The notes under the pieces: model-generated | Told to the model about the DNA's origin: nothing | Database searches by the model: none | Seen by the model: only the letters and a program-made list of their open reading frames with translations | Assembly: GCA_021828545.1 (NCBI GenBank) | Contig: JAJZEN010000038.1 | Span: 1 to 32,020 of the forward strand | Origin: Actinomycetes bacterium | Lineage (GTDB): Bacteria; Actinomycetota; Acidimicrobiia; Acidimicrobiales; RAAP-2 | Direction of reading: 5' to 3' | DNA: 32,020 bases | Part shown: positions 1,921 to 32,020 of the stretch, one piece after another | Numbering within the stretch: the stretch's first letter is position 1 | Layout: each line of letters opens with the position of its first letter | Made by a program: the position numbers and the translations under genes

Positions 1921-3021
1921 CTACGCAATCGCGCAACGGTTGGGACCCAATTCCATTTCCAACGCATCAGCACTGAGCGTCTCAGAGCCTTCGTTGATGC
2001 GCACGATCCGCTGATAATTCGGCGGACGGTCCTTGACATTAGCCATCGCCCAGGCCACGAAGTCGTCTTCGCTCATGGCCAGTGCCGCCAGGGAATGACG
2101 TAAGTCACCTAGGGGCCGCGCGACGAAGATATCAGCGTGGACCTCGACCGCACTGCCGTAGTGCGCGGGAAAGACGGTCGTCGTATCCGACAACGGCAAG
2201 ACGCGCTCGTGGAGACTCCGATAAAGATTGTGGGCGAACACCTCGGCCTGGTCCGCCAAATCTGGTCGACCCACACTCTCGAGGAACAGCGTGTCACCCG
2301 TGAAGATCGCGGCCGCGCCGAGTTGGTACATCGTCGACCCTTCGGTATGTCCCGGCACGCTCACCGCGGAGACGGTCAGGGACACGTCGGGGGCGAGTTC
2401 GATTCGTCGCCCGTCGCGCAGGGCCTCAAACGCGAAGTGAAAGGGGTCCGATGCGCTCAGCAACAGTGTCGCACCCGACTGGGCGACGAGGTCGCGCGCG
2501 CCCGACAGGTGGTCGGCGTGCAGATGAGTGTCGAGGACGTGAGTAATCTCCCATCCGTGCTCGCGCGCGACGTCGCGATACTGTTCCACGTCGAGCGACG
2601 GGTCGATGGCGACGCACGTCGCCCCGGCACCCACTACGTAGGAGAGGCAGCCCTTTCCGCGACGGCGAATCTGTACGACGGTGGCACCACCAACGTCACC
2701 GGTCACGCGGTCGTAGGTCGACGCCCACGCGCCCATACCACCGTGCAGGACCGCACTGGGAATCGCGTGACGCGCGAGAATTTCCGCACCCAATTGAGCG
2801 CGCGCTCCCTTCGCGCAAATGAGTACGAGCTTCGCGTCGCCCGGAACATCGTCGAGCGAATTCTCCAGGGCCGCCAGAGGAATGTTGTGCACTCCCGGAA
2901 TCTGCCAGTCCGCGACCTCGTCGGGTTCTCGGACGTCGATCATGTACAACGCGTCGTCAGCGTCAAGTCTGCCCAGCAACTCGCTGGTAGTGATGCTCGA
3001 AATCAATTCACCGGTCGCCAT
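1921..3021 (-). CDS. Rhodanese-persulfide dioxygenase fusion (ETHE1-like metallo-beta-lactamase fold)
   Basis: 366 residues with two domains. Residues 8-108 are a rhodanese domain with the active-site loop CAKGARA (Cys69), which carries sulfur as a persulfide. Residues about 115-345 are a metallo-beta-lactamase-fold domain with THLHADH (165-171), GHTEGS (His225) and FTGDTLF (Asp243), the layout of ETHE1-type iron persulfide dioxygenases that oxidise glutathione persulfide to sulfite. The fusion would pass sulfane sulfur directly from one site to the other, a known arrangement in bacterial sulfide detoxification. The ATG at 3021 lies 6 bases after a TAGACT box, so the transcript is probably leaderless. 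A second, single-domain rhodanese is divergently encoded next door, suggesting a small sulfur-handling locus. Confidence 0.85.
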   Translation of the reverse strand: MATGELISSITTSELLGRLDADDALYMIDVREPDEVADWQIPGVHNIPLAALENSLDDVPGDAKLVLICAKGARAQLGAEILARHAIPSAVLHGGMGAWASTYDRVTGDVGGATVVQIRRRGKGCLSYVVGAGATCVAIDPSLDVEQYRDVAREHGWEITHVLDTHLHADHLSGARDLVAQSGATLLLSASDPFHFAFEALRDGRRIELAPDVSLTVSAVSVPGHTEGSTMYQLGAAAIFTGDTLFLESVGRPDLADQAEVFAHNLYRSLHERVLPLSDTTTVFPAHYGSAVEVHADIFVARPLGDLRHSLAALAMSEDDFVAWAMANVKDRPPNYQRIVRINEGSETLSADALEMELGPNRCAIA

Positions 3022-3033: not shown

Positions 3034-3085
3034 TGGTGGAAACAAAAGAATGCTCTAACGAGTGTCCGTTCGGAAGGTGAAGAAA

Positions 3086-3421
3086 ATGACCCCAGTGGAG
3101 AATATTGACGTCGCGCGGGCCCTGGAACTTCTCGACGGCGGCGCCGTGCTGCTCGACGTCCGAGAGGACGACGAGTGGCGCGCGGGACACTCACCACTCG
3201 CGACACACATTCCCTTGTCGTCCGTGCCCGACGCCGTGGACGACCTCGCGCACGAGCGACGTATCGTGTGCGTCTGTCGCTCTGGGGGCCGCTCCGCGCG
3301 CGCCGCTCAGTTTTTGACCGAACAGGGATTTGACGTGGTCAATCTCGAGGGCGGCATGACCGCCTGGCAGTCGTACGGGGCCGAGATGGTCGCCGACGAC
3401 GGCGAGCCGACCGTCGCCTGA
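3086..3421 (+). CDS. Single-domain rhodanese sulfurtransferase
   Basis: 111 residues from ATG 3086. The protein is one rhodanese domain: LLDVREDDEW near the start, the active-site loop CRSGGRSA (catalytic Cys in CVCRSGG), and the closing LEGGMTAWQ. It would move sulfane sulfur between thiols. I chose ATG 3086 over the in-frame GTG at 3062 because GGAAGG sits about 9 bases before the ATG and the domain begins just after it. It is divergent from the rhodanese-dioxygenase fusion, and both likely serve sulfide or persulfide handling. The exact partner is inferred only from this neighbourhood. Confidence 0.8.
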   Translation: MTPVENIDVARALELLDGGAVLLDVREDDEWRAGHSPLATHIPLSSVPDAVDDLAHERRIVCVCRSGGRSARAAQFLTEQGFDVVNLEGGMTAWQSYGAEMVADDGEPTVA

Positions 3422-25276: not shown

Positions 25277-28132
25277 CTAGGACGGGTGTTTCGCGTTGAA
25301 TTTCGCTTTGTGACCGCACACAGGGTAACTACTGCACCCGATGAAGAATCCGTAGGGCCCCGATCGATGCACGAGAGTTCCGGTGCCACAGTCCGGACAT
25401 GCGACCTTGCTCTTGTGGTGACAGGCTGGAAACATGGTGCATGCCAGAAATGGATCGTAAGGTCCGTGGCGTTCCATCAGCGTTCCCTTCCTGCACGATG
25501 GGCACACGATGATGGAACTGCCGCCGGGGGACTCCACAACCACCTTGGGGTCCGAAAGGAGCTCGACCACAAAAGGAGAAGGCTGTGCCAGCGAAGCGAG
25601 AATGAAGACTCCTCGTCGTGCGCGGGTGAGTGCGACGTAGAACAGTCGGCGCTCTTCGGCGTGGGGGTAGATGTCGGGTGTCGGCATGGCCAATTCCAGA
25701 ACGGGATCATCGTTGATATTCGACGGGAAGCCAAACGCACCCGCCGACATACCCAGGATTATGACGACATCGGCTTCAAGCCCCTTGGATCCGTGAACGG
25801 TCTTGAACGTGACGTCCAGGCCCTCCCACTTCCGCCTCGGCAGTGCTTCTCGCTGAAACCAATAGCGACCAAGTACATTCACGGTCGTTGCTCCGGAGCG
25901 TTCGCCACGAAGAGAACTGGCGATGACCTCCGCAGACAGTCGGTTGAGAATCTGCTCGACGGCACGATGCTCGTCTTCGGTCGAGACCACCGTCACTGGC
26001 CGACCCGGCGAGGTTGCCACCGACCTCATAGCCTTATCGAATTGGACGGGATTCTTCGAGACGAATCTCCGGGCAACGTCACAGATCTCTTGTGAACAGC
26101 GATACGTGGTGGTCAAGCCGAGCTGCGGACCACGACCGAACCACCTAGAGAACTGGTTCATGACGGACACGTCCGCGCCAGCGAAACGGTTGATCGACTG
26201 CCAGTCATCGCCGACAGCCAATAGGTAGCGGCCTGGCTCCTTGAGAAGCCCCCTGATAAACCGGGCGCGAGCCTGACTGGAGTCCTGGAACTCATCAACC
26301 AGAATGAGCTCGTACGGCAGACTGACGCCCCCATCTTCCAACAGATCTGCCGCTTGCAGGAGCATGTCCTCGAAGTCGACACTCTCCTCCGCCTTCAGAC
26401 GACGTTGCCACTCTTCGTGTATCGGCCAGTAGCACGACAGAAATAGTCGAGTGCGAAAGCCGTCGAGCTCGCTCATCTCCCCAGCGAGTCGGCGCTCAAG
26501 ATCCTGAGCGGACCATGAATTGGACTTCACGTGGCACATGAAGGTGCGAACGAGGCGGGCCAGATCCTCATGCTTGAGCGGTTTAGCCCACGAATCCACG
26601 CTAGGCCTATCAGGGTTCCAGTCAAACTCAAGACCACGATCAGTCAGTTCGGCCTTTAGCCGCTTGAAGCCATCCGCGAACATCACTTGGGCCCACGTCG
26701 TCTCAATCAGCGTGGTACCGAACTGAGAGTGCAGATTGCGCTTCCACTGCATCTCCTGCGGGTAGTCGGTGAAGTCCTTCGGTGGGTGGCCGTCTCGATC
26801 AAGGGCCCAGTGCTCATGCCACACGTCGATATCCGGGTAGTAGAAGTCGGGGTGGTACTGCGAGTGCGTAGCATCGGCGACATCGTGAGCAAAGGGGCGC
26901 TCGTACTCGAAGTCAATCCCGTTGAGAAAGAGGAAGTTAGCAATCAAGCGCTCCCCTTCGCTTTTGACGAGTGTCCCAGAAAGGGTGCGAAAACCCGTCG
27001 TGCGCGAAACACTGTGATATCCGTCCGGTGAGCCATCGTCCAAGCGAGTCGGGGCGTTGGCGAAGAGAATCCGATACAGATCCCAGTTGTATCGAAAGTC
27101 CTCTGAACTGTCGCGAAGGTGGTCAGCGATCTCGACGGTCATCGCCAAGTCGTCCCCCTGTTCCAGCCAACGCGCCAGTCGCGGTTTCTTGCCCGTAGCG
27201 CTACCGATGACCTCAAGGCCAAATGCGTGAAACGTCGATGCCTTGACGCCTTCCGAGGGAATGCCCGCAGCGGCAAAACGAGTTTCGATGCGTTCCTGTA
27301 GTTCGCTCGACGCAGCCCGATTGAAAGCGAGCAACAGCACCCTGTCGGGTGGCACGATGCCCCGATCTACCGCGTACGCCGCCCTCGCCACCATGACCGA
27401 CGTCTTTCCTGAACCCGCTGCCGCGAGAACTTGAACTCGATTGTCAAAACTGACCACGGCGCGCGCTTGTTCCTCCGAAAGAGGTGTCCGTTCGATGCTG
27501 TCGAAGAACGCGCGTCGCTCGATCAATTCGCTCTCGACAACTTGTTCGTTGACAACTTGAACTCTCGCCTCAAGATCTGTTGTCACGAAGATTGCCGCTT
27601 CGAACTGCTCAACCGTTAGTAGGTGCTCGCAGCCATGTAACCGGGTCCGGTCACGAAGGTCTCTTGCAGGACGACGAGAAATGATCAGAGCGACCTCTTC
27701 CGACTGGATCCACCGTCGTTGTTCCAGCCGACTATCAATGAGGATCTGCACTTCCTCTCTCCAGCGAACCGATCCATCAAGTTCAGGAAGCAATTCCCAG
27801 TATTCGAACCACGCGGACAGTGCCTGTGCATCAACCTTCTTGCAACCATTCAGCGCTGTGCGGGTCTCACCTTCTTGGAGAAGGAAATATCGAAACCACC
27901 TCCGCTTGACACTTAGCTTCGAAGCGGCAAATCGATCATGCCTGACGTTGCTGCCTTTGGCGACGATCTGAATCGAGTCGGCTTCCAACGCAATCTGCCA
28001 GTTCTTACCAGACCAGGCACGACGGTCCACTCGACTTCTCAAGTATCCGTTGTCACGATGACGTACGCTACTGGCCTCAATGGCCAGTGTCGGATACAGA
28101 CCAAGGAATGCGAGCCCCTCGGAGGAGAGCAA
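25277..28132 (-). CDS. SF1 UvrD/helicase-IV-like helicase with embedded PD-(D/E)xK nuclease and two zinc fingers
   Basis: 951 residues. About 1-115 resemble the helicase IV N-terminal domain. SF1 motifs follow: Walker A AAAGSGKTS (238-246), VDEFQDSS (612-619), GDDWQSINRF (641-650), TTYRC (675-679), VHGSKG (779-784) and YVALTRAR (832-839). Between the helicase blocks, about 390-485, lies a nuclease insert with YHPDFYYPD (Asp429), HEHWALD (Glu440) and WKRNLH (Lys464), a PD-(D/E)xK core. The C-terminus carries two topoisomerase-type C4 fingers (Cys877, 880, 898, 904 and Cys912, 915, 933, 939). It should unwind and cut DNA; a role in repair or phage defence is inference. The only start is TTG 28132, directly after an in-frame TAG; no ribosome-binding site is visible and the gene begins 7 bases from the tRNA-Gly piece. 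Confidence 0.85.
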   Translation of the reverse strand: MLSSEGLAFLGLYPTLAIEASSVRHRDNGYLRSRVDRRAWSGKNWQIALEADSIQIVAKGSNVRHDRFAASKLSVKRRWFRYFLLQEGETRTALNGCKKVDAQALSAWFEYWELLPELDGSVRWREEVQILIDSRLEQRRWIQSEEVALIISRRPARDLRDRTRLHGCEHLLTVEQFEAAIFVTTDLEARVQVVNEQVVESELIERRAFFDSIERTPLSEEQARAVVSFDNRVQVLAAAGSGKTSVMVARAAYAVDRGIVPPDRVLLLAFNRAASSELQERIETRFAAAGIPSEGVKASTFHAFGLEVIGSATGKKPRLARWLEQGDDLAMTVEIADHLRDSSEDFRYNWDLYRILFANAPTRLDDGSPDGYHSVSRTTGFRTLSGTLVKSEGERLIANFLFLNGIDFEYERPFAHDVADATHSQYHPDFYYPDIDVWHEHWALDRDGHPPKDFTDYPQEMQWKRNLHSQFGTTLIETTWAQVMFADGFKRLKAELTDRGLEFDWNPDRPSVDSWAKPLKHEDLARLVRTFMCHVKSNSWSAQDLERRLAGEMSELDGFRTRLFLSCYWPIHEEWQRRLKAEESVDFEDMLLQAADLLEDGGVSLPYELILVDEFQDSSQARARFIRGLLKEPGRYLLAVGDDWQSINRFAGADVSVMNQFSRWFGRGPQLGLTTTYRCSQEICDVARRFVSKNPVQFDKAMRSVATSPGRPVTVVSTEDEHRAVEQILNRLSAEVIASSLRGERSGATTVNVLGRYWFQREALPRRKWEGLDVTFKTVHGSKGLEADVVIILGMSAGAFGFPSNINDDPVLELAMPTPDIYPHAEERRLFYVALTRARRGVFILASLAQPSPFVVELLSDPKVVVESPGGSSIIVCPSCRKGTLMERHGPYDPFLACTMFPACHHKSKVACPDCGTGTLVHRSGPYGFFIGCSSYPVCGHKAKFNAKHPS

Positions 28133-28138
28133 GTACTA

Positions 28139-28175
28139 GTTGAGAACGCGAGTTCGATTCTCGTCGCCCGCTCCA
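28139..28175 (+). tRNA. Partial tRNA-Gly 3' end (probable attachment site)
   Basis: T-stem GCGAG (28148-28152), loop TTCGATT, T-stem CTCGT (28160-28164), acceptor strand CGCCCGC (28165-28171), discriminator T and CCA (28173-28175). This is the 3' end of a tRNA-Gly, whose 5' acceptor strand would be GCGGGCG; no such strand, D-arm or anticodon arm precedes it. Displaced tRNA 3' ends mark the far end of integrative elements. By that model the intact gene lies to the left on the plus strand, but it is not in this window. Confidence 0.7.
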
Positions 28176-28734
28176 AATAGATTTCGTTGTACTGTCTGAA
28201 CTTTCGTCCAGCGTGCAATCACGTCGCTTAGTCACTGTCTGTCTCCTTTCGCTGCTTGTTTGCCACGGTTTAATGTCGCGGTGATGTCACAGACGACAAT
28301 ACGTGACAACAGTGACGCTCGTTCATACGACCTCGGCCTGCGGCGACTTACACGTTCGAGGATAGGGAGTTAGTGCGAGGCACGCCAACAAATTGACTCA
28401 CGTCCATTAGTGGCTACTGCAGATCGTGCTCGAGAACGAGTCCCCTTCCCGTGATCATGCTGACAGCCATCCCGCGGTGAGAAGCGGGTTGGCCCGTAGG
28501 GCTGCGACGTGCGTTAAGTGGCGTTCGTGCGATCCACGAGGTCCACTGGAGAAATTCACCGGCCAGTCACGGCTGCCCTATCAACAAAGTCTAGTCCCTT
28601 TGACTCGAGGAATTGCTGCTGGCTACGAAGGTATCTGAGCTGTTCGCTCGAATCACAGTCGTCGACGAGACTGAATCTTTACTATTTCCTAGAGGCTCCG
28701 GAATACCTGGGATGATTCACGTCGAGGGCATCGT
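28176..28734. other. Gene-free stretch between the tRNA-Gly piece and the YCII gene
   Basis: About 560 bases of lower GC. Short open frames are present on the plus strand but have no start signals or domains. Several GTGAC/GTCAC words cluster near 28290-28315, possibly protein-binding sites. No integrase remnant was recognised. Confidence 0.4.
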
Positions 28735-29671: not shown

Positions 29672-29720
29672 TGGCAGTCCCAACGGGATTCGAACCCGTG
29701 CCTCCACCTTGAGAGGGTGA
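29672..29720 (-). tRNA. Partial tRNA-Glu (CTC) 3' part (probable attachment site)
   Basis: On the minus strand: anticodon arm TCACC-CTCTCAA-GGTGG (29720-29704) with anticodon CTC (reads GAG, Glu), variable AGGC, T-arm ACGGG-TTCGAAT-CCCGT (29699-29683), acceptor strand TGGGACT, discriminator G and CCA (29674-29672). The expected 5' acceptor strand and D-arm are missing from the bases upstream. A piece running from the anticodon arm to CCA is the classic identity segment of tRNA-targeting integrases. The intact gene and the integrase should then lie to the right of the window. Confidence 0.7.
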
Positions 29721-29845
29721 TTAACATCACGGACCATCTCTCCCGTAAGTACTGATCAAACCTAATTAATTTTGCGAAATTTCGCGAGTCAACGTAAGTC
29801 GGGCGTTCCACGGGCGTTAGCGAATTCAAATATAGCGAGTTGCGT

Positions 29846-31774
29846 TCAACCATCCAAATGACTTTCGGCCGCGTTCGAAGTAGCCCAAGTAGTTAAGTTT
29901 TTTGGGTCGAACGCGTCGGCGTATGTACCAACCTCTCTGCTCCGAAGTAGAGCTAGAAGCCTTGACAGATTGTCGGTCAGGTCAGGATCTCCGAGTTCGC
30001 GAGCAACGTGAATTAACTTGGCTAGTCCCTTCGAGGCATATTTGTATGATTGCTCACCGGCAATTTTCAGCGCCTGTGTGGAAATGTACTTGCGCACGAA
30101 TGCCATTGAGACCGAAGGTTCTCCGTCGACGATAATCGCTCGTCGCAACTTTAGAAATTCAGTCTCTGAGATCTCTTCCGAAGTTCCAAGAACCGCGCGG
30201 CTCATCTTCACTGGGAATTCGACTGTTCGAATAATGCCCGCACATTGAAGATCGCAGCGTAGCTCGTTGATGTCGTCTCCCAATGCCGGAACTAATGAAG
30301 CAATTTCAGGCATCTTGAAATCTCGACCATTGGACGCTTGGACTTTCACAACGCATCGATCAACACTCACATGAACATCGCTCCATCCACCCGAAACAAG
30401 AAGCGCCTCAAGTAAAGTCTCTGTCGGCAATAGATCGCGGGAATCCGGGAAGGGTGGATCTAAACCGGCGTCGCTCAACGCGATCGTGACCGCAAGCCAA
30501 ACTGCAAGGGATGATTCGACAACAGCTCCAACCAGATCGGTGAACTCGGGCGCAGTTAATTCAACTGATTGGCCTACTGACGCCTTCAAGGGACAGAGAG
30601 TGATACGACCACTATTGAATGAATAATCGCTGTGAGCACTTGCGTTTCGGATGGCGGGGCTCAAAGCAAAGGCAAACTCGAGATTGCGACTTACTGCCCA
30701 TCCGATCAAGTTGGTCACACCAGACGAAAGGATGTTTTCATACGTGTTCTTTACTCCAGCGACGATTTCCAATGTTGCCACTGAATACTTGACGATTCCT
30801 TCCAGGAGCTCCTTGCACACCAAGAGCGAAGTAAACACAGAATCTGCATCCGTCGTAAGTTTCTCGAAGAGTGCCCGTGCGACTTGATGTGTTCTCCAAA
30901 GCGCCCGACCTTGTTCCTCCCAGGTCGTTCTCCACGTGATGTCGCTGCCTAGTTGCAGAACTTCACTGTGAAATTCGCGGAGGAAAATGACGAGCTGCTT
31001 TGTTTCACTCCAGAAAATTTCGGCATCGAGATATGCCTCGGCGAACACGTCAATCATCGGAATGAAGAAACCAATTGGGGGTGAAGTAATCAATCCAATT
31101 CTTTGGTTGAGAATACCAACCCCCGCATTTGCAAAACTGAGTATTCCATCATCCGAGTCCTGAGTGAGTTCAAGATTGGAGAGCGCTAGGGCAGCCAGGT
31201 TAGCTGGCGAGAACTGGGGAGTATCAAGTTCCGAAAAGGTGTCAAGTAGCCGCCTCATTCTGCTGAGTGAAACCGTAGCGGCATCGATCTCTGCATTCAT
31301 CCGCCGTGATGCCTCCTGGGCTTCAATCGGTGTGGTCGCACCCACAACTTCAAAGAACGTCGCTGCAAAGGCATCAATTGACGAGAAAACTACTCTCATT
31401 TGCTTCCAGACACCCACCTTTGGCCGACCCACTGCCTGGCGCAGATTGGATCGTGTAGCTGAGATTTGCCTCGCCACTTCATCAAGTTTCCCCGAAGAAC
31501 CTTGGTTCGACCTCACCTCAGAGAACGCATCGATTAGATCTCGGATATGTGTGGACATGTCACAGAAGACGGCTTCAATATCATTTGTGCTTGGCGCCAT
31601 TTCATGAACAAGATTCTCACGCGCTACATCGATGAGCCTCCGTCGAACTTGGCTTTGAGAATTGATTTCCACGCGCGGAGTTTGATATCCGCAGCTTGGG
31701 CACTCGATTCCGGCGATACGCTTGACGCCACAATTACAGATGATCTGACTGAATGACAACTTGATCTTTTGCAC
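29846..31774 (-). CDS. Large protein with N-terminal zinc ribbon and HEPN-type R-N-x3-H motif
   Basis: 642 residues; I do not recognise a named family. Residues 13-28 form a possible zinc ribbon, CNC-x9-CPSC (Cys13, 15, 25, 28). The long middle, about 45-370, is largely helical with few motifs. At 376-381 RNASAH fits the R-x4-H catalytic motif of HEPN ribonucleases, with the usual Asn after the Arg, followed by a short strand-like segment DYSFNSGRITLCP. About 250 residues of mixed structure follow. If HEPN is right, the protein may be an RNA-cutting effector triggered by infection or stress; this is inference from one motif. GTG 31774 has TAGGAG 6 bases upstream. Codon use is less GC-biased than in the chromosomal genes. 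It lies next to the tRNA-Glu piece and is probably cargo of that element. Confidence 0.7.
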   Translation of the reverse strand: MQKIKLSFSQIICNCGVKRIAGIECPSCGYQTPRVEINSQSQVRRRLIDVARENLVHEMAPSTNDIEAVFCDMSTHIRDLIDAFSEVRSNQGSSGKLDEVARQISATRSNLRQAVGRPKVGVWKQMRVVFSSIDAFAATFFEVVGATTPIEAQEASRRMNAEIDAATVSLSRMRRLLDTFSELDTPQFSPANLAALALSNLELTQDSDDGILSFANAGVGILNQRIGLITSPPIGFFIPMIDVFAEAYLDAEIFWSETKQLVIFLREFHSEVLQLGSDITWRTTWEEQGRALWRTHQVARALFEKLTTDADSVFTSLLVCKELLEGIVKYSVATLEIVAGVKNTYENILSSGVTNLIGWAVSRNLEFAFALSPAIRNASAHSDYSFNSGRITLCPLKASVGQSVELTAPEFTDLVGAVVESSLAVWLAVTIALSDAGLDPPFPDSRDLLPTETLLEALLVSGGWSDVHVSVDRCVVKVQASNGRDFKMPEIASLVPALGDDINELRCDLQCAGIIRTVEFPVKMSRAVLGTSEEISETEFLKLRRAIIVDGEPSVSMAFVRKYISTQALKIAGEQSYKYASKGLAKLIHVARELGDPDLTDNLSRLLALLRSREVGTYADAFDPKNLTTWATSNAAESHLDG

Positions 31775-31957
31775 TTGGAACTCCTATTCGTTTGTCGAAC
31801 TTTTGTCAATCGCCAAATTCGATCAACGTTCGAATATTGAGGCAGACACATTGTGATCACGTGCATTGCAACTCACCTACCTATGGACGATGACGTGTGT
31901 CAAGACGTACCACCTGTAGGGCGACGCATTCAATGACCAGCAACGCCCGCTGAAACG
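31775..31957. other. Upstream region of the zinc-ribbon/HEPN gene
   Basis: No gene. A TTGACA lies on the minus strand near 31809, about 20 bases before TAGGAG. TCGAAC (about 31795) and GTTCGAA (about 31829) form a spaced inverted repeat around it that could be an operator; weak. Confidence 0.3.
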
Positions 31958-32020
31958 TCACTGACCGTGATGATGAGTTAGTGCACCGCTGGTGGTTGCG
32001 CTGTCGCTGGTGGTGATGAC
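31958..32020 (-). CDS. Possible 3' end of a gene running off the right edge
   Basis: The minus frame is open from the window edge to TGA 31960-31958, 20 codons rich in Thr, Ser and His. It is too short to identify; it may be a real C-terminus or chance. Confidence 0.2.
   Translation of the reverse strand, partial: VITTSDSATTSGALTHHHGQ

What the first reader, a model, noticed from the sequence alone, without database searches (positions are those of the whole stretch)
29672..29720. Second displaced tRNA 3' part (Glu-CTC), opposite strand
The 49-base segment runs from the anticodon arm to CCA, the typical integrase identity block, and lacks the 5' half. Its orientation predicts an element extending rightward from here, carrying the zinc-ribbon/HEPN gene, with the intact tRNA-Glu and the integrase beyond the window.
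Basis: partly seen in the sequence, partly recalled or inferred. Interest (0 to 1): 0.55.

Follow-up and report, generated by a model that had tools for sequence, protein, structure and literature searches.

The report
Displaced tRNA-Glu end marking inserted DNA
An uncultivated actinobacterium carries a stray copy of the back half of its glutamate tRNA gene, the usual scar left when a mobile element inserts at a tRNA; relatives show the same scar repeatedly, so it is a recurrent insertion site of a familiar kind.

Summary
Window 29721-29672 (minus strand) is identical to the last 50 bases (anticodon arm to CCA) of the genus tRNA-Glu(CTC); the normal 5' half is absent. Among 140 distinct copies of this 3' part found in the 172-genome family besides the window's, 117 are intact genes, 22 displaced like this one, 1 masked. 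In displaced copies the match to the tRNA breaks 0-8 bases before the anticodon, as at class A tRNA attachment sites. Two relatives of other genera show the predicted layout on one contig: intact tRNA-Glu, tyrosine integrase, cargo, displaced part (G009, 9.5 kb; G046, 6.6 kb). The contig ends at 32020 in a repeat, and tRNA-Glu, tRNA-Gln(CTG) and gltX were not found in this bin, so this element's integrase and intact tRNA were not seen; in the window's own genus no integrase was found beside an intact tRNA-Glu. Verdict: an attR-type scar at a recurrent site; new member of a known kind.

The parts
29672..29721 (-). displaced 3' part of tRNA-Glu(CTC), anticodon arm to CCA (attR-type site)
   Evidence: exact identity with the intact tRNA-Glu(CTC) of same-genus genomes; 5' half absent
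29752..29757 (-). GATCAG, 44 bases before the anticodon; candidate integrase arm-binding site at the element end
   Evidence: RAYCAG at this offset in 4 of 4 displaced copies of the genus (window, L075, L076, L107) and in none of the other 20 non-intact contexts; score 29, best of 20,000 shuffles 28, 4 of 20,000 random offsets reach it; pattern chosen after seeing the sequences
29846..31774 (-). 642-aa cargo gene; N-terminal Cys motif and RNASAH motif (zinc-ribbon/HEPN-like by motif only)
   Evidence: own genome only among 172 family genomes; one distant near-full-length homologue, 23% identity, with RDADAH; no Pfam match over cut-off, no PADLOC match
31909..32020 (.). repeated sequence at which the contig stops
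   Evidence: 112 bases identical to G000:C165; a copy 87% like the C165 sequence in G000:C39
1..3421 (.). chromosomal anchor: genes that follow tRNA-Glu in relatives (rhodanese 3062-3421 +, MBL-rhodanese 1921-3021 -, peptidase-like 903-1916 +, membrane protein 398-847 -, oxidoreductase-like 1-345 +; names are my reading, not a domain search)
   Evidence: same order and orientation downstream of tRNA-Glu in relatives: all five genes in 3 of the 40 first-fetched genus loci, the MBL-rhodanese in 15 of 40
28138..28176 (+).
   Evidence: intact tRNA-Gly(CCC) at G000:C65:19567-19640

Best explanation
A mobile element integrated by a tyrosine integrase at the anticodon loop of the chromosomal tRNA-Glu(CTC) gene. 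Its attP carried a copy of the tRNA 3' part, so the gene next to the integrase was rebuilt whole and the original 3' part was pushed to the far end of the element. That displaced part is window 29721-29672. The chromosome continues to the left; the element, with the 642-aa gene as cargo, runs right and off the contig. Shown: the displaced part, its locus by gene order, the same layout with an integrase in two relatives, low GC on the right. Inferred: that this element has or had its own integrase, and that an intact tRNA-Glu closes its right end.
For: Exact tRNA identity. 22 other displaced copies among 140 distinct contexts, in 17 other genomes, breaking 0-8 bases before the anticodon. Two complete relatives on one contig: G009:C36 and G046:C80, intact tRNA-Glu, Pfam Phage_integrase just after it, cargo, displaced copy; an integrase just after an intact tRNA-Glu also in G002 and G052. 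Occupied and empty site in the genus: the flank after the displaced copy of G092:C148 resembles the flank after the intact tRNA-Glu of G100, with the rhodanese gene 0.4 kb on in both. Gene order downstream of tRNA-Glu recurs at the window's left end. GC falls from about 0.64 to 0.50. Arm-like motif at a fixed offset in 4 of 4. tRNA-Gln(CTG) lies upstream in 92 of 111 intact contexts with 300 bases held and in 0 of 24 others (22 displaced, the window, 1 masked).
Against: No integrase and no intact tRNA-Glu is held for this element. In the window's own genus none of 38 intact tRNA-Glu contexts with 1.5 kb or more downstream had an integrase by my profile; all four cases are among 33 such contexts of other genera. 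Of the three other displaced copies of the genus only G092 has an integrase in the held DNA, 5.7 kb away, and relatives of that integrase lie beside tRNA-Gly. 8 of 10 same-contig intervals held no recognised integrase. No relative was found with the same element or with the window's immediate left flank after an intact tRNA-Glu. GC already declines from about 24 kb, so composition marks no sharp edge.
Confidence: 0.84

Rival explanations
1. Remnant (a weaker form of the main reading, not exclusive of it): the element inserted at tRNA-Glu but has since lost its integrase or its other end, and the 3' part is a scar only.
For: 8 of 10 same-contig intervals in relatives have no recognised integrase; the contig end is a repeat present in at least two other contigs.
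Against: The 3' part has not decayed at all (50 of 50), as expected of a recent event; but several integrase-less intervals in relatives also keep perfect copies.
Confidence: 0.3
2. An unusual functional tRNA-Glu without a D arm, or a tRNA pseudogene made by deletion in the 5' half.
For: cmscan aligns 61 bases end to end at 28.7 bits, and GGTCC upstream can pair with the acceptor end; no other tRNA-Glu was found in the bin.
Against: 5 of 22 displaced copies in relatives score 29.5 to 42.2 bits; the best acceptor pairing in the window is 5 of 7, against 5 or 6 of 7 in the others; gltX and tRNA-Gln(CTG), neighbours of the real gene, are not beside it and were not found in the bin.
Confidence: 0.04
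3. Chimeric assembly joining a tRNA-Glu 3' end to unrelated DNA.
For: Several relative contigs stop within 1 to 5 bases of this site (L074, L085, L079), so assemblies branch here.
Against: The arm-like motif sits at the same offset as in three other genomes; gene order to the left fits; the join lies inside the contig. Read depth could not be checked.
Confidence: 0.06

Closest known systems
tRNA-integrated genomic islands as defined by Islander (tRNA gene plus displaced fragment; class A, anticodon-centred)
   Same: displaced 3' tRNA part reaching the 3' end, break near the anticodon, integrase beside the intact tRNA in relatives
   Different: here the intact tRNA and the integrase lie beyond the contig; 8 of 10 related intervals lack a recognised integrase and 5 of 10 are under 2 kb, which the Islander filters would reject (PMC4383910, passages)
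attR tRNA gene fragments mistaken for tRNA genes (PMC9897764, passages)
   Same: partial tRNA left by an integrated element
   Different: the detailed cases there are archaeal, with partial and complete copies both in hand
tycheposons (PMC10872708, passages; otherwise recalled)
   Same: tRNA-anchored flexible island with a tyrosine recombinase and cargo
   Different: their own recombinase type and cargo were not tested here

Membership tests
tRNA-integrated genomic island (Islander definition) | a 3' fragment of a tRNA gene reaching the tRNA's 3' end | tested here: met
   50 of 50 identical to genus tRNA-Glu(CTC)
tRNA-integrated genomic island (Islander definition) | intact cognate tRNA at the other end, same orientation, correct side | tested here: inconclusive
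   off the contig and not found in the bin; seen in relatives
tRNA-integrated genomic island (Islander definition) | tyrosine integrase gene between the two | tested here: inconclusive
   none in the 2.3 kb held to the right; present in G009 and G046, absent by profile from 8 of 10 intervals
tRNA-integrated genomic island (Islander definition) | crossover at the anticodon-loop (A) or T-loop/junction (J) subsite | tested here: met
   match breaks 8 bases before the anticodon in the window and 0-8 bases before it in the displaced copies; the search itself could not see copies that begin further 3'
tycheposon | its characteristic recombinase and cargo layout | not tested
   only the tRNA anchoring resembles it

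The most novel reading that the evidence does not exclude
The tRNA-Glu(CTC) locus of this family works as a stacking site for small cassettes: units of 0.5 to 6 kb without an integrase, each ended by the tRNA 3' part and carrying arm-like sites, are inserted and shuffled in trans by integrases of occasional full-length elements, so that toxin-antitoxin and other cargo genes move between sites much as cassettes do in an integron, and the window's 642-aa gene is one such cargo.
Probability: 0.15. Interest if true: 0.6.

Novelty: new member of a known kind. Interest (0 to 1): 0.27.

Why it matters
It shows, in an uncultivated family whose named relatives are mostly Acidimicrobiaceae bins with palsa, bog and fen isolate names, one tRNA gene at which elements have inserted repeatedly: 18 genomes with a displaced copy, counting this one. 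That gives a precise handle on the mobile gene pool of these bacteria, helps explain why assemblies break there, and points to a new cargo protein. If the integrase-less units prove mobile in trans, it would be a tRNA-anchored cassette system.

Tried and rejected
Unusual tRNA: rejected on the control with other displaced copies and the neighbour-gene argument. One displaced copy, L076, reaches 42.2 bits over the full tRNA model; ARAGORN does not call it (whose script stopped with an error after the table was printed). I have no explanation beyond chance for that score.

Finding the rest of the element in the own genome: integrase hits in G000 (9, 7 of them listed) were followed to C165 and C102 only. 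C165 shares 112 bases with the window end, but this is a repeat also in C39, and its recombinase genes are followed by what I read as ordinary chromosomal genes. Lead dropped.

The integrase of the G092 element as the tRNA-Glu integrase: relatives at E 1e-60 in 51 of 172 genomes; of 25 loci fetched (mostly 1.5 kb on each side) 8 hold a tRNA-Gly gene and none a tRNA-Glu. Not shown to be specific for tRNA-Glu.

The stretch 3.4-29.6 kb as one island: not supported. Parts (3.4-6.0, 11.2-14.6 and 15.4-16.8 kb) are collinear with named relatives, G087 has the 16.8-17.0 kb stretch 1.3 kb after an intact tRNA-Glu, and no second tRNA-Glu part lies in the window.

Cargo gene: nothing over cut-off in Pfam, nothing in PADLOC, genome contigs, viral contigs or phages; one weak plasmid hit, 21.8% identity over 69%; AlphaFold2 from the single sequence gave pLDDT 37.6, unusable, so no fold search was run. 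A downstream motif (CTGRTY) is weak: 5 of 60 flanks against a mean of 0.93 and a maximum of 4 in shuffles.

Papers: passages of PMC4383910, PMC10872708 and PMC9897764 seen. Two searches on this theme listed 1 and 3 papers, of which I saw titles and abstract starts; none is evidently about this locus. That is no proof of absence.

Full report
Setting. The window is the whole contig C8 of a 1.96-Mb, 167-contig genome bin, 91% complete. Of 19 named contigs with a relative of the gene at 1921-3021, 15 are labelled Acidimicrobiaceae or Acidimicrobiales and 11 have palsa, bog or fen isolate names.

The observation. On the minus strand, 29721 to 29672 reads ATCACCCT CTCAAGG ... to CCA. Same-genus genomes carry an intact tRNA-Glu(CTC); where CCA is encoded its last 50 bases are identical, and the window departs just before ATCACC. 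ARAGORN finds no tRNA in the window. cmscan reaches 28.7 bits only by skipping the D arm. As a control, of the 22 displaced copies in relatives 5 pass 29 bits (L107 30.6, L178 29.5, L076 42.2, L068 32.5, L072 30.4) and 17 were not reported, 6 copies having been searched at E up to 0.5 and 16 at the gathering score. So a score near 29 arises in displaced copies too.

Census. The 39-base core with up to 3 mismatches occurs in 119 of 172 family genomes. I fetched the surroundings of the listed places and sorted the distinct contexts: 117 intact, 22 displaced, 1 masked, 140 in all, without the window (identical contexts counted once; the named contigs L132-L150 and all loci of the window itself left out). 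The 22 lie in 17 genomes: 3 of the window's genus (G092, G115, G155) and 14 of other genera. In the 24 non-intact contexts (22, the window and the masked one) the match to the tRNA runs 0 to 8 bases further 5' than the anticodon. The pattern starts at the anticodon, so copies that begin further 3' are missed. This is the A class of attachment site (PMC4383910, passages).

Same layout, complete, in relatives. G009:C36 has an intact tRNA-Glu, an integrase just after it, cargo with a large RHS-like gene (my reading), and a displaced copy 9.5 kb on. G046:C80 has an intact tRNA-Glu, an integrase and a displaced copy 6.6 kb on. The integrases beside an intact tRNA-Glu in G009, G046, G002 and G052 match Pfam Phage_integrase at E 2.5e-14 to 2.4e-24. 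Against a simple picture: my profile, built from 11 integrases (the G009 one among them) and used at E 1e-8, found those four among 33 other-genus intact contexts with at least 1.4 kb downstream, and none among 38 same-genus contexts with at least 1.5 kb. Of 10 same-contig intervals (nine measured, one more in L182), only G009 and G046 held an integrase; the other eight run from 0.5 to 5.6 kb. Distant or broken integrases may be missed.

Which side is the element? In the genus, tRNA-Glu is preceded by a gene that I read as gltX (in 30 of 40 loci) and, in 92 of 111 intact contexts with 300 bases upstream, by tRNA-Gln(CTG). It is followed by rhodanese, MBL-rhodanese, a peptidase-like gene, a membrane protein and an oxidoreductase-like gene (names are my reading). 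Of the 40 first-fetched genus loci, 14 have the rhodanese, 15 the MBL-rhodanese and 3 all five; many contigs are too short to tell. The rhodanese centre lies 0.2 to 9.3 kb from the tRNA end. In the window these five genes occupy 3421 to 1, in the same order and orientation relative to the tRNA strand, 26 kb from the displaced copy. So the left side is the chromosome downstream of tRNA-Glu. G092 and G100 give an occupied and an empty site in the genus: the flank after the displaced copy of G092 resembles by eye the flank after the intact tRNA-Glu of G100, with the rhodanese 0.4 kb on in both. The 26 kb in the window is not one island: parts are collinear with named relatives.

The right side. 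GC falls from about 0.64 to 0.50, beginning near 24 kb. The 642-aa gene at 29846-31774 matched in 1 of 172 family genomes, its own. In a class sample 3 of 395 genomes match, the own one included; one of them over residues 4-616 at 23% identity. That homologue has RDADAH where the window protein has RNASAH, and Cys motifs near its N-terminus (my reading), which fits the zinc-ribbon/HEPN label but does not prove it. The contig stops in a repeat: 31909-32020 equals part of C165, of which C39 has an 87% copy. No second tRNA-Glu core, no 5' half, no tRNA-Gln(CTG) and no gltX was found in the bin; one search lists 41 tRNA matches, and name 39 tRNAs, none of them Glu. Their joint absence suggests that the neighbouring contig was not binned, not that the genes are lost. 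The gltX search had no positive control in this genome.

Element-end motif. In 4 of 4 displaced copies of the genus, RAYCAG starts 44 bases before the anticodon (window 29757-29752); none of the other 20 non-intact contexts has it there. Its score is 29; the best of 20,000 shuffles reached 28, and 4 of 20,000 random offsets reached 29; 0 of 118 intact rows (repeats not removed) have it. The pattern was defined after seeing the four sequences. I take it as a likely arm-binding site.

Mechanism. Integration at the anticodon loop, tRNA rebuilt by the element's own 3' part, original 3' part displaced to the far end. For this copy the integrase and the rebuilt tRNA are inferred.

Novelty. Known kind, new member, at a recurrently used site. 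The lead beyond that is the large share of integrase-less units between tRNA-Glu 3' parts in relatives, some with genes that I read as toxin-antitoxin-like, and one small gene seen near this tRNA in G087, G115 and G155 (sequences).

Noticed in passing
window 28138-28176 (+): 3' part of tRNA-Gly(CCC); the intact gene is at G000:C65:19567-19640, and about 120 bases beyond both copies are also alike (76% over 156 bases in all), which a simple single insertion does not explain.
   Followed up: partly
G155:C91 (L128) and G157:C22 (L131), tRNA-Glu(CTC): Intact tRNA-Glu with ATACC...GGTAT in the anticodon stem, changed on both sides and still paired; G155 also holds a displaced copy of the usual form at C84.
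   Followed up: partly
L107 around 9946 (G155:C84): Displaced tRNA-Glu part beside what I read as an ABC-transporter operon and IS3-type transposases.
   Followed up: no
L084 (G087), L128 (G155), L076 (G115): The same small gene (MWQAPDIQDVA...) lies near tRNA-Glu copies in three genomes; in G087 a nucleotidyltransferase-like gene (my reading) follows it, so it may be half of a toxin-antitoxin pair.
   Followed up: no
L076:1461-1531 (-): A displaced tRNA-Glu part whose unrelated 5' side still gives 42.2 bits with the tRNA model over its full length.
   Followed up: partly
G000:C165:26-2450: Three adjacent tyrosine recombinase genes, the first truncated next to a repeat shared with the window end; looks like a recombinase-in-trio element (name recalled).
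   Followed up: partly
L162, L167, L169-L173, L175: One integrase family sits beside tRNA-Gly (TCC or CCC) in 8 of the 25 loci examined, a second tRNA hot spot in this family of genomes.
   Followed up: partly
window 25277-28132 (-): 951-aa UvrD-type helicase with topoisomerase-type zinc fingers at the C-terminus, matching GajB profiles of PADLOC through its helicase part; it ends at the tRNA-Gly part.
   Followed up: no
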